Shown here piece after piece: positions 44,251 through 48,258 of a DNA stretch of 64,000 nt. Positions within the stretch are counted from its first letter, which is position 1. Each line of letters opens with the position of its first letter. The notes under the pieces were generated by a model. That model made no database searches. It worked only from the letters and a program-made list of their open reading frames with translations, and had not been told where the DNA came from. Source of the stretch: Vicingaceae bacterium (GTDB lineage Bacteria; Bacteroidota; Bacteroidia; Flavobacteriales_E; Vicingaceae); assembly GCA_019429185.1 (NCBI GenBank), contig JAHYJH010000001.1, positions 36,821 to 100,820 of the forward strand. The letters run 5' to 3'. The position numbers were made by a program, and so were the translations under genes.

Positions 44251-44577
44251 ATGAATGCAACATTTGGGGAGTACATCAGACAATTAAGGACAGATAAAGG
44301 TTTGACTTTAACAGAACTAGCAGCTCTACTCAAACTTGACTCTGCAAATTTGAGCAAAATAGAGAACGGAAAACGAGAGTTTGACGAAAAGCGTTTAGAC
44401 AAACTAGCAATAGCATTTGACCTTGATTTTGAAAGACTAAAAACAGAATATTTTGGCGACCAATTCGCAAAAAAAATGTACGAGTACAAATGTTCTCCTG
44501 AAACATTAATTGTTGCAGAAGAAAAAATGAATTACTTAAAAAGTATTAATATCAAACAAGCCGAAATAAAATTCTAA
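44251..44577 (+). CDS. XRE-family HTH regulator (putative R-M controller)
   Basis: GEYIRQLRTDKGLTLTELAALLKLDSANLSKIENGKREFDEKRLDKLAIAFDLD. Confidence 0.85.
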   Translation: MNATFGEYIRQLRTDKGLTLTELAALLKLDSANLSKIENGKREFDEKRLDKLAIAFDLDFERLKTEYFGDQFAKKMYEYKCSPETLIVAEEKMNYLKSINIKQAEIKF

Positions 44578-44581
44578 AACT

Positions 44582-47089
44582 ATGAACAAACCATTGACTT
44601 ACATTAGTTTATTCAGCAGTGCAGGAGTTGGATGTTATGGCTTCAAACAAAACGGTTTTGAGTGCATTGCAACAAATGAAATTCTTACAAAACGTCTAAA
44701 AATTCAGTTTTGCAATGAGAAATGTAAATACGAAACAGGATATTTAGATGGAGATATTTCAACAAAAGAAATCAAAAACAAACTTTTTTCAGAAATCAAA
44801 AAATGGCAGTCAGAACATAAAATTTCCGAGCCTGATATAATTGTGGCTACGCCACCTTGTCAAGGTATGTCTGTTGCAAACCATAAAAAAAACAAAGAAT
44901 TGACTAGAAATTCTTTGGTAGTTGAATCTATAAAAATAACCAAGGAAGTAAATCCTAAATTTTTCATTTTTGAAAATGTTAGAGCCTTCTTAAATACGAC
45001 TTGTACAGACATTGACGGAATAGAAAAACCTATTGAAGATGCAATAAAATTAAACTTAGGAGGTCGCTACAATATCCTTTTTAAAGTTGTAAATTTTAAA
45101 GATTATGGTTCTCATTCTAGCCGAACAAGAACTCTTGTAATCGGAGTACGTAAAGATTTACAAAATATCAGTCCTTATGATATTTTTCCAGAAAAATCAA
45201 AGCCTAAAACGCTACGAAAACTTTTTGGAGGCTTAGAAACATTAAATGAAATGGGGCAAATATCGGAAACCGATATTTATCACTCATATAGAGAGTTTGA
45301 CAAAAAAATGCTTCCTTGGATTGAAAATTTGAAAGAAGGCGAATCAGCGTTTCAAAATACTGATGAAGAAAGAATTCCACACCAAATCAAAGAAGGAAAA
45401 ATCGTTTTCAACGAAAGCAAAAATGGAGACAAGTATGCTCGTTGGTATTGGGACAGAGAAGGTCCTTGTGTACACACAAGAAATGATATTTTGTCGAGCC
45501 AAAACACAGTTCATCCATCTGAAAATCGAGTTTTTAGCATTAGAGAATTAATGCTAATGATGAGTATTCCTATTACTTTTCAATGGACAAATAAATCAAT
45601 TGAAAAGCTGAATGGATTGAGTATTCTTGAAAAGAAAATGTTTTTAAAGAAAGAAGAACTAAACATTAGGCATTGTATTGGAGAAGCAGTTCCGACAGGA
45701 GTATTTGAAAATATTGCAAGGAGAATAAAATCAGTTTTGAGTCAAAAAGTACTTTCTACAACAGAAATTAACAATATTATAAACAGAGAAGAACTAAATA
45801 AAACAGAGAATTTGATTTCATTCATAAATTCCGATTTCAAAAAATCAGGGCTTGAAAACATTTATCAAATTGCAGAATATGCTAATTCAAGTCGTCAAGA
45901 AAATTCTGCATTTTTTACAAGAAAAGACATTGCTTTTACTGTTGTGAAAGATTTACCTGAACTTAAAGGTAAAAAGAAAATACGAATTTTAGAACCGTCT
46001 GTTGGTATTGGTAATTTCATTCCTTTGCTCGTTGAAAAATATCAAGATAAGGATGAAGTTATTTTTGACCTATTTGACATTGATAGTAATTCTTTTATAG
46101 TTCTAAAAAATATTTTAGCCAAATTAGGATTACCTAAAAAATTCAAATTCAATTTTATAAATGCTGATTTCCTTACTCATAACTTTAATATAAAATATGA
46201 CATAGTTGTAGGAAATCCTCCCTACAAAAAACTCACTAACAATCAAGAACAATTATCTCTTTACAAATTCGCAGTAAGGAATAAAGAAACAAACAATTTA
46301 TTCTCGTTTTTTATTGAAAAGGCTATTTCGTTAGGTAATTTTGTTTCACTTATCGTTCCCAAAAGTCTTATTAATTCTCCTGAGTTTGATATAACAAGGC
46401 AAATTTTAAAAGAGCAGAATCTATTAAAAATATGTGATTATGGCGAGAAAGGCTTTAAAGGTGTTAAGATTGAAACAATAAGTTTTTTGCTTGAAACTTC
46501 AACTAAAAAACAATCCGAAACTATATTAATAGAAAGTTACATCACAGAAACAGTTCAAGAGAAACAAAAAGATTATTTATTTTCTGACAAATTCCCTTAT
46601 TGGTTGATATACAGAAATGAAGAGTTTGACCAAATTTCAGAAAAAATGAAATTTGATATTTTTCATAGTTTCAGGGATAGACAAATCACAAAACAAATCA
46701 CAAAAGGCAACGGGAAATATAGAGTATTAAAATCTCGTAATATTGGTAATAACGAAGTTAAGGAATTAGAAAATTACGACTGTTATATTGACGATATGGA
46801 AAATTTGGCTGTCGCCAAATTTCTCAATCGTGAAGATGTTGTAATGATTCCAAACCTTACCTATTACCCAAGAGCGAGTTTTTTACCACACAATACAATT
46901 ACAGATGGTTCGGTTGCTTTATTAACATTAAAAAATGGTAGCCGTCTTCCTACAGAAAAAGATTTGGAATATTACGGCTCAAAAGAATTTGAAAAGTTTT
47001 ACAGAGTTGCTCGTAATTTTGGAACTCGTTCGCTTAACATAGATAATAATTCTGTTTTTTTCTTCGGGCTTTTAAATGATATAAAATGA
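44582..47089 (+). CDS. Fused DNA methyltransferase: N-terminal C5-cytosine MTase + C-terminal N6-adenine MTase
   Basis: N-terminal YISLFSSAGVGCYGFKQNGFECIATNEI, IIVATPPCQGMS, FIFENVRAF; C-terminal IRILEPSVGIGNFIPLL and YDIVVGNPPYKKL. Confidence 0.9.
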   Translation: MNKPLTYISLFSSAGVGCYGFKQNGFECIATNEILTKRLKIQFCNEKCKYETGYLDGDISTKEIKNKLFSEIKKWQSEHKISEPDIIVATPPCQGMSVANHKKNKELTRNSLVVESIKITKEVNPKFFIFENVRAFLNTTCTDIDGIEKPIEDAIKLNLGGRYNILFKVVNFKDYGSHSSRTRTLVIGVRKDLQNISPYDIFPEKSKPKTLRKLFGGLETLNEMGQISETDIYHSYREFDKKMLPWIENLKEGESAFQNTDEERIPHQIKEGKIVFNESKNGDKYARWYWDREGPCVHTRNDILSSQNTVHPSENRVFSIRELMLMMSIPITFQWTNKSIEKLNGLSILEKKMFLKKEELNIRHCIGEAVPTGVFENIARRIKSVLSQKVLSTTEINNIINREELNKTENLISFINSDFKKSGLENIYQIAEYANSSRQENSAFFTRKDIAFTVVKDLPELKGKKKIRILEPSVGIGNFIPLLVEKYQDKDEVIFDLFDIDSNSFIVLKNILAKLGLPKKFKFNFINADFLTHNFNIKYDIVVGNPPYKKLTNNQEQLSLYKFAVRNKETNNLFSFFIEKAISLGNFVSLIVPKSLINSPEFDITRQILKEQNLLKICDYGEKGFKGVKIETISFLLETSTKKQSETILIESYITETVQEKQKDYLFSDKFPYWLIYRNEEFDQISEKMKFDIFHSFRDRQITKQITKGNGKYRVLKSRNIGNNEVKELENYDCYIDDMENLAVAKFLNREDVVMIPNLTYYPRASFLPHNTITDGSVALLTLKNGSRLPTEKDLEYYGSKEFEKFYRVARNFGTRSLNIDNNSVFFFGLLNDIK

Positions 47090-48258
47090 GAAAACAGATA
47101 AACGATTTTTTTGCAGGATATGATTTTGATGTTAGAAAATCAAATGATGCAAGATTTGTTGACCAAAAATGCACGCCTGACATCGTTTGTTTTATGGCTG
47201 ATTGTGTTTTAAATATGATAGCTACTAAACCTGTTTTCGTTATTAATGATGTATGGGGTACTCAATATTTCATACAAAACAGTAGAGTTATTTTTAATAA
47301 ACCTTGGGCAAATGACAAAAAAGCATATAATGAATACAACAAGGTTCTTTCACAGCCACTTAAACTTTTAGCATATTCTAGAGTATTAAACGTAGAAAAA
47401 ATAAATGGTTCTTTAACATTTTCAGTTAACAATGAGGAGTTATTGGATTTTATATCAAGAAAAGATAGAAATGCTTATAATTTTCTTTATTGTTACTTCT
47501 CCAAAGTACTTGCAGACAGCAGTTTCCTTAAATATATGGAAACCTATCGGGAAGACTGCCTAAAAAATTTAAATGAGGCAAGAGAAAATTTATACGAAAA
47601 ATATTTTAGGTTTATTTCAGGCAATACGCCTACTAAATCAAGATTAGACATTCGTAGAATGTTTCATAAAATTTTAAATGTTTATGCTGTTGAGCACAAC
47701 ATTCCAGGTAGTAATGGTAATTTTTCAGCATCATATTCAGAAATGATGTATAATAAGAAAAATTGGAGGGATTATGACAAGGAAAAATCAGTTACAAGAC
47801 AAGAATCGTTAAATACAGAAGATATAGAAAAACAGGAATTTATAAATGCTTATTATGTGCAAAAGGCAATTGCATTAATCCGAAAGATTCATAAAGAAAC
47901 TGAAGTGAAAGACCAATGGGGTATTGGAGAGGCGACACAAGTTCATCACATTTTTCCACGTTCTGAATTTCCACAATTAGCTCATTATGTAGAAAATTTA
48001 ATTTTATTGACTGCAACGCAACACAATACTAAAGCACACCCAAGTAATAAAACGCAACAAATCAATAAAGATTATCAGTTAACTTGCTTACTATCAAAGG
48101 CAAATAGTATTGAAATATCTATAAATAAAGGAGAATTTGTGTATAGAAAAGAATCTTTCATTTTTGTAATAAATACAGGATTATCAGAAGAACTAGAGAT
48201 TAATCTTGATTTCACAAACATCAAAAAAGAACTAACGAGAATCTATAATGCAGCTTAA
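47086..48258 (+). CDS. HNH-family restriction endonuclease (putative)
   Basis: TQVHHIFPRSEFPQLAHYVENLILLTATQHNTKAHP HNH motif; start overlaps MTase stop (ATGA). Confidence 0.75.
   Translation: MRKQINDFFAGYDFDVRKSNDARFVDQKCTPDIVCFMADCVLNMIATKPVFVINDVWGTQYFIQNSRVIFNKPWANDKKAYNEYNKVLSQPLKLLAYSRVLNVEKINGSLTFSVNNEELLDFISRKDRNAYNFLYCYFSKVLADSSFLKYMETYREDCLKNLNEARENLYEKYFRFISGNTPTKSRLDIRRMFHKILNVYAVEHNIPGSNGNFSASYSEMMYNKKNWRDYDKEKSVTRQESLNTEDIEKQEFINAYYVQKAIALIRKIHKETEVKDQWGIGEATQVHHIFPRSEFPQLAHYVENLILLTATQHNTKAHPSNKTQQINKDYQLTCLLSKANSIEISINKGEFVYRKESFIFVINTGLSEELEINLDFTNIKKELTRIYNAA

What the first reader, a model, noticed from the sequence alone, without database searches (positions are those of the whole stretch)
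44251..48258. Compact R-M locus with one polypeptide fusing C5-cytosine and N6-adenine methyltransferases, plus an HNH nuclease
Seen: XRE controller-like gene, 835-aa ORF with C5-MTase motifs (FSSAGVG, PPCQG, ENV) in its first ~400 residues and an amino-MTase module (LEPSVGIGNF, NPPY) in its second half, then a 390-aa ORF with an HNH motif overlapping by ATGA. Established knowledge: type IIS systems of the Alw26I/Eco31I/Esp3I group use m5C and m6A on opposite strands, and Eco31I cleaves with an HNH site. Inference: this is a single-chain modifier of an asymmetric site paired with a small HNH REase; specificity unknown.
Basis: partly seen in the sequence, partly recalled or inferred. Interest (0 to 1): 0.72.

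Follow-up and report, generated by a model that had tools for sequence, protein, structure and literature searches.

The report
HpyAV-type restriction system with fused methylases
This is a horizontally acquired bacterial restriction-modification system whose single protective enzyme carries two DNA methylases in one chain; the same arrangement was described in Helicobacter pylori (HpyAV, site CCTTC) in 2010, so it is a new member of a known family rather than something new.

Summary
An XRE regulator, an 835-aa protein with complete C5-cytosine and gamma-type N6-adenine methyltransferase halves, and a 390-aa HNH nuclease (ATGA overlap) form one operon at 44251-48258. The proposed relatives (Alw26I/Eco31I/Esp3I) are wrong: C5 domains of that group are circularly permuted, this one is not. 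The locus belongs to the published HpyAV/Hin4II family of Type IIS systems: 823-aa fused-MTase profile full length (E 1.6e-220), REase profile 6.5e-78, same gene order, and H288/N304/H313 at the spacing of HpyAV H295/N311/H320. In H. pylori M.HpyAV (HP0054) is a C5+N6A fusion that puts m5C on CCTTC and m6A on GAAGG. The predicted site here is therefore CCTTC (about 70%), cut about 6/5 downstream (less certain). The module was inserted between agcS and a comEA-like gene that are adjacent in four congeners. One mildly new result: regulator, methylase and nuclease behave as exchangeable cassettes. Methylases about 90% identical are paired with nucleases only 50% identical, and nucleases 83% identical with methylases 60% identical (AU p = 2e-30), which suggests a shared site across those lineages. 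Otherwise ordinary; low interest.

The parts
44216..44232 (.). Probable operator of the XRE regulator: TTGTCAATTATTGACAA, -35 to -19 from its ATG
   Evidence: Sequence. Same-position palindrome TTGTCA-N5-TGACAA in L006, L038, L041, L044 and L047, whose XRE is 68-91% identical. Function inferred.
44251..44577 (+). XRE/Cro-type HTH regulator, 108 aa, controller-like
   Evidence: HTH_3 5.4e-12; PADLOC Control_protein 2.1e-07, HTH_VI 5.3e-12; conserved upstream of the MTase in close relatives
44582..47089 (+). Fused C5-cytosine + N6-adenine DNA methyltransferase, 835 aa (M.HpyAV-like)
   Evidence: PADLOC PDLC03277 (823 positions) over residues 3-832, 1.6e-220
44582..45751 (+). C5 domain, residues 1-390; motifs I FSSAGVG (11), IV PPCQG (91), VI ENV (131), VIII SSRTRT (179), X GEAVPT (367), canonical order
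   Evidence: PF00145 2.2e-39; PDLC03370 (387 positions) 2.1e-142; PPCQG and ENV invariant in 79 of 79
45161..45517 (+). Target recognition region of the C5 domain, about residues 194-312
   Evidence: Lies between motifs VIII and IX; collinear and 42-54% identical in distant relatives, 43% in the likely H. pylori orthologue L090
45752..47086 (+). N6-adenine domain, residues 391-835, gamma type; motif I EPSVGIGNF (471), IV NPPY (545); TRD in its C-terminal part
   Evidence: PF07669 Eco57I 5e-14; PDLC03382 (445 positions) 1.5e-89; NPP invariant in 79 of 79
47086..48258 (+). HNH (beta-beta-alpha-Me) Type IIS restriction endonuclease, 390 aa (R.HpyAV-like)
   Evidence: PDLC03488 6.5e-78; AlphaFold model pLDDT 87 with strand 283-288, strand 305-309, helix 310-317
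47944..48024 (+). HNH active site: H287/H288, N304, H313
   Evidence: Invariant in 83 of 83 relatives; H-N spacing 16 and N-H spacing 9 equal HpyAV H295/N311/H320, whose mutation removes or cuts activity (PMC2816704)
43622..48577 (.). Extent of the DNA inserted between agcS (42024-43631) and the comEA-like gene (48578-49489)
   Evidence: The two genes are adjacent in four same-genus genomes; conserved flanks stop at 43621 and resume at 48578

Best explanation
A complete Type IIS restriction-modification system of the HpyAV/Hin4II family, acquired horizontally. The C5 half of the 835-aa enzyme methylates a cytosine on the CCTTC strand and the N6A half an adenine on the GAAGG strand, so both strands of the asymmetric site are protected. 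The 390-aa HNH nuclease binds the same unmethylated site and cuts a few bases downstream (6/5 in HpyAV). The XRE protein binds the palindrome at 44216-44232, at the predicted promoter, and sets expression of the operon. Shown here: gene content, order, domain completeness, catalytic residues, family membership, insertion. Inferred from homologues: catalysis, the CCTTC site (about 0.7), the 6/5 cut, autoregulation.
For: Full-length match to the 823-position PADLOC MTase model (1.6e-220) and to the REase model (6.5e-78). Model lengths 823, 387 and 445 equal M.HpyAV, M1.Hin4II and M2.Hin4II in Table 2 of PMC2816704, and the 822-aa MTase of a 1.6-Mb Helicobacteraceae genome (L090) scores 1868 bits on that model. 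The paper reports M.HpyAV as a C5+N6A fusion with the R gene downstream and an HNH site H295/N311/H320. H. pylori methylome: CCTTC m5C 91.9%, GAAGG m6A 96.0%, HP0054. A Neisseria locus probably equal to the Table 2 homologue (42% identical to M.HpyAV) also methylates GAAGG, 98.7-99.9%. The C5 TRD is collinear across the family. REase/MTase partner swaps imply one shared site among the lineages involved. All catalytic residues are invariant.
Against: No methylome or cleavage data for this organism. MTase identity to Helicobacteraceae members is only 46-48%, REase mostly 36-39%. The window clade carries YARWYWDxEGPC where most relatives, including L090, have RQ...APC in the C5 TRD, so a change of specificity is possible. 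CCTTC is not rare in the window (86 found, 77 expected), which neither supports nor refutes. Linking NEIS0295 to the Table 2 Neisseria homologue rests on the locus number.
Confidence: 0.87

Rival explanations
1. Same family and mechanism, but the site is a different asymmetric sequence (such as one base off CCTTC), making it a new prototype specificity.
For: 46-48% MTase and about 36-39% REase identity to Helicobacteraceae members; clade-specific changes in the C5 TRD; Chan et al. themselves allowed a 1-bp difference for distant homologues.
Against: Probable 42%-identical Neisseria homologue keeps GAAGG; REase swaps across MTase lineages with both TRD types (L043 with L038/L041/L047: RE 80-83%, MT 60%) argue for an unchanged site.
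Confidence: 0.25
2. Member of the Alw26I/Eco31I/Esp3I group (GTCTC sites).
For: Shared general logic: m5C plus m6A on opposite strands and an HNH nuclease (literature).
Against: C5 domains of that group are circularly permuted; this one is canonical. Eco31I has two separate MTases. Full-length matches lie with HpyAV-length models.
Confidence: 0.02
3. A decayed or solitary methylation locus without active restriction.
For: REase decay occurs in the family: interrupted by a transposase in Neisseria, split into two frames in L090.
Against: All frames intact, HNH residues present, ATGA coupling kept.
Confidence: 0.08

Closest known systems
HpyAV (Helicobacter pylori 26695, HP0053/HP0054; PMC2816704)
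   Same: M gene is a C5+N6A fusion followed by the R gene in the same direction; similar lengths (823/419 vs 835/390 aa); identical spacing of HNH residues
   Different: No matching XRE gene beside the MTase in the Helicobacter relatives searched here; sequence identity 46-48% (M) and about 36-39% (R) to Helicobacteraceae members
Hin4II (Haemophilus influenzae RFL4, CCTTC)
   Same: Same domains in the same order, C5 then N6A then REase; isoschizomer of HpyAV per PMC2816704
   Different: C5 and N6A enzymes are separate genes (387 and 445 aa)
Bst43183ORF2897P / M.Bst43183ORF2897P (Bacteroides stercoris; Table 2 of PMC2816704)
   Same: Same phylum; 390-aa REase and 856-aa fused MTase listed as an HpyAV homologue in 2010
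   Different: Not compared directly here; uncharacterised
Alw26I / Eco31I / Esp3I group
   Same: m5C and m6A on opposite strands of an asymmetric site; Eco31I is an HNH enzyme
   Different: Circularly permuted C5 domains, two separate MTases in Eco31I, different family
HphI and MnlI systems
   Same: Type IIS, HNH enzymes (listed in PMC2816704); C5 plus N6A methylation from my own knowledge
   Different: Separate MTase genes and other sites (own knowledge); sequences not compared here

Membership tests
HpyAV/Hin4II family of Type IIS R-M systems | C5 domain followed by gamma N6A domain, fused (HpyAV) or adjacent (Hin4II) | tested here: met
   PDLC03277 full length 1.6e-220; PDLC03370 and PDLC03382 on the two halves
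HpyAV/Hin4II family of Type IIS R-M systems | HNH REase of about 390-420 aa directly downstream, with H-x15-N-x8-H spacing | tested here: met
   PDLC03488 6.5e-78; H288/N304/H313 match H295/N311/H320
HpyAV/Hin4II family of Type IIS R-M systems | Recognition of CCTTC, cleavage 6/5 | not testable with these tools
   No methylome or cleavage data; TRD conservation and partner swaps give indirect support only
HpyAV/Hin4II family of Type IIS R-M systems | m5C on CCTTC and m6A on GAAGG | not testable with these tools
   Shown for HP0054, not for this organism
Alw26I/Eco31I/Esp3I group | Circularly permuted C5 MTase (motifs IX-X before I-VIII; PMC5944983) | tested here: not met
   Motif order I (11), IV (91), VI (131), VIII (179), IX (about 314), X (367)
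Alw26I/Eco31I/Esp3I group | Recognition of GTCTC or extensions of it | not testable with these tools
   No functional data
C-protein-controlled R-M systems | Small HTH regulator upstream with a conserved palindromic operator | tested here: met
   XRE gene 4 bp upstream of the MTase; palindrome conserved at the same position in five relatives
C-protein-controlled R-M systems | Timed activation of REase expression by the regulator | not testable with these tools
   Needs expression data

The most novel reading that the evidence does not exclude
The window's clade of fused methylases has shifted to a new asymmetric site near CCTTC (clade-specific YARWYWDxEGPC segment in the C5 TRD), and the repeated replacement of its nuclease partner accompanied that shift, so that one methylase lineage would show how a Type IIS system re-matches methylase and nuclease specificity.
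Probability: 0.15. Interest if true: 0.45.

Novelty: new member of a known kind. Interest (0 to 1): 0.2.

Why it matters
The locus itself only extends a family described in 2010. What it adds is evidence that regulator, fused methylase and HNH nuclease of this family are traded as separate cassettes between Bacteroidota. Nuclease lineages about 50% identical to each other serve nearly identical methylases, which suggests that the site is fixed and gives natural sets for mapping which nuclease residues read it. No solved structure is detectably similar to this REase, so the family is also a reasonable structural target.

Tried and rejected
Alw26I/Eco31I/Esp3I kinship: rejected on motif order. 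Direct retrieval of named H. pylori 26695 HpyAV: not possible. Foldseek of the REase model against PDB: no match at E <= 0.001; weak winged-helix-like hits only. Phmmer of the REase against PDB: nothing significant. Literature search for a Bacteroidota GAAGG methylome: none found; the Prevotella intermedia paper has no such motif. The first impression that the identity break lay inside the REase (blastn) was dropped: protein alignment puts the difference from the REase start, i.e. at the M/R junction. A second structure job (MTase) was not run, since motif and profile evidence already settle both domains.

Full report
Observation. Pfam gives a C5 methylase over residues 6-383 (2.2e-39) and Eco57I/N6_Mtase over the second half (5e-14, 1.4e-06); HTH_3 hits the XRE protein (5.4e-12); HNH is weak in Pfam (0.011). 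PADLOC resolves this: one 823-position Type II MTase model covers residues 3-832 at 1.6e-220, 387- and 445-position models match the two halves at 2.1e-142 and 1.5e-89, and a REase_II model matches the 390-aa ORF at 6.5e-78.

Identity of the family. Those lengths equal M.HpyAV (823), M1.Hin4II (387) and M2.Hin4II (445) in Table 2 of Chan et al. 2010 (PMC2816704). That paper states that M.HpyAV (HP0054) is a true fusion of a C5 and an N6A methyltransferase, with the HNH REase gene (HP0053) downstream in the same direction, recognising CCTTC and cutting 6/5, and lists ten homologous systems with fused MTases, one in Bacteroides stercoris. A 1.6-Mb Helicobacteraceae genome (L090) has an 822-aa MTase that scores 1868 bits on the 823-position model, so the model very probably represents M.HpyAV itself.

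Anatomy. C5 motifs occur in canonical order (I at 11, IV at 91, VI at 131, VIII at 179, IX about 314, X at 367), and the N6A half has motif I at 471 and NPPY at 545. The key residues (PPCQG, ENV, the glycines of motif I, NPP) are invariant in 79 aligned MTases, and HH/N/H in 83 REases. H288-N304-H313 reproduces the spacing of HpyAV H295-N311-H320; in HpyAV, mutation of N311 and H320 eliminated cleavage and H295A left about 1%. The AlphaFold model of the REase (64-row alignment, pLDDT 87, pTM 0.84) shows strand 283-288, strand 305-309 and helix 310-317 around these residues, the order expected of a beta-beta-alpha-Me site. Foldseek finds no significant solved relative.

Why not Alw26I/Eco31I/Esp3I. 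C5 enzymes of that group are circularly permuted, with motifs IX-X ahead of I-VIII (PMC5944983), and Eco31I uses separate 546- and 396-aa MTases (PMC10810934). The window enzyme fails the permutation test. It works on the same principle but is not a member.

Specificity. NEIS0295 of Neisseria meningitidis ST-11, probably the locus listed by Chan et al. as 42% identical to M.HpyAV, gives GAAGG at 98.7-99.9% (PMC7973814), so specificity seems stable at that divergence. The window MTase is 46-48% identical to Helicobacteraceae members, and its C5 TRD aligns without large gaps and is 43-48% identical to theirs. I put CCTTC at about 0.7. The reservation is a clade-specific segment (YARWYWDxEGPC instead of RQ...APC). 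CCTTC is not depleted in the window (86 against 77 expected), which is uninformative.

Cassette exchange. A genome-contig scan brought 80 loci, mainly Bacteroidota but also Campylobacterota, Bacillota, Pseudomonadota, Ignavibacteriota and others, 73 of 80 scorable loci (plasmid ones included) with fused MTases and 7 split (my count; plasmid examples L002 fused, L003 and L004 split). MTase and REase trees disagree. The window MTase is 89-90% identical to those of L047, L038 and L041, but their REases are 50-51% identical to the window's. The window REase is 71-72% identical to those of L007-L010, whose MTases are only 56-58% identical. L038 and L043 share 83% in the REase and 60% in the MTase. 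Holding the eight-member MTase clade together on the REase tree costs 521 log-likelihood units (AU p = 2.3e-30); the group was taken from the MTase tree, though after both trees had been seen. The XRE gene exchanges too: L005 has the window-type MTase and REase but an XRE only 37% identical to the window's and 85% to that of L028. Five of the six combinations of two XRE types with three REase types are seen around one MTase lineage: A-I (window, L006), A-II (L038, L041, L047), A-III (L044), B-I (L005), B-III (L028). Because a nuclease with an unprotected site would be lethal, such swaps are most easily read as one shared recognition site. I found no report of this for the family, but the held library is incomplete.

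Regulation. A palindrome TTGTCAATTATTGACAA lies 19-35 bp upstream of the XRE start, and the form TTGTCA-N5-TGACAA is at the same place in L006, L038, L041, L044 and L047. In L006 and L038 it overlaps TAAATTTG, which fits the Bacteroidetes -7 consensus TAnnTTTG (own knowledge). Autoregulation by the XRE protein is inferred.

Mobility. In four same-genus genomes the flanking agcS and comEA-like genes lie directly next to each other; conserved sequence stops at window 43621 and resumes at 48578. None of 59 relatives has the MTase at the strict cut-off used. The module is therefore a horizontal insertion, probably recent. Its left boundary carries a 164-bp repeat that is present in about 40 near-identical full or partial copies in this genome. 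Whether that element took part in the insertion is not shown.

Verdict. Correct observation and largely correct mechanism, wrong relatives, and an already described kind of system. New member of a known kind; interest low, with cassette exchange as the only point worth a specialist's attention.

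Noticed in passing
window 43619-43782 and 55225-55388; single ends near 48373 and 18871: 164-bp MITE-like element with inverted ends (TTAGGGTCTGTAATG); about 40 near-identical full or partial copies in the genome, several at contig ends. One copy sits exactly at the left boundary of the R-M insertion.
   Followed up: partly
window 43772-43797 and 48538-48563: 26-nt direct repeat (88% identical) bracketing the inserted R-M segment; possible scar of the insertion.
   Followed up: no
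window 48264-48558: Small ORF between the REase and the comEA-like gene that changes frame (68-aa ORF, then a second frame ending LSRLYGQTLNNK); looks like a broken small membrane protein. No homologue beside the R-M module in the fetched loci.
   Followed up: partly
L029, L033-L037, L040, L050 (MTase N-terminus): Fused MTases of some Prevotella and Salinivirgaceae carry an extra N-terminal domain of about 150 aa with no Pfam match; L045 has a different N-terminal extension.
   Followed up: partly
L105 (also L106, L108): C5, N6A and REase sets (with XRE in L105) on contigs classed as viral in IMG/VR; L105 has the same upstream sequence as Carboxylicivirga L042, so it may be a provirus or host DNA.
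   Followed up: partly
window 40505-41521, - strand: 338-aa protein with weak PD-(D/E)XK / HSDR_N matches near the R-M module (below cut-offs); possible defence nuclease.
   Followed up: no
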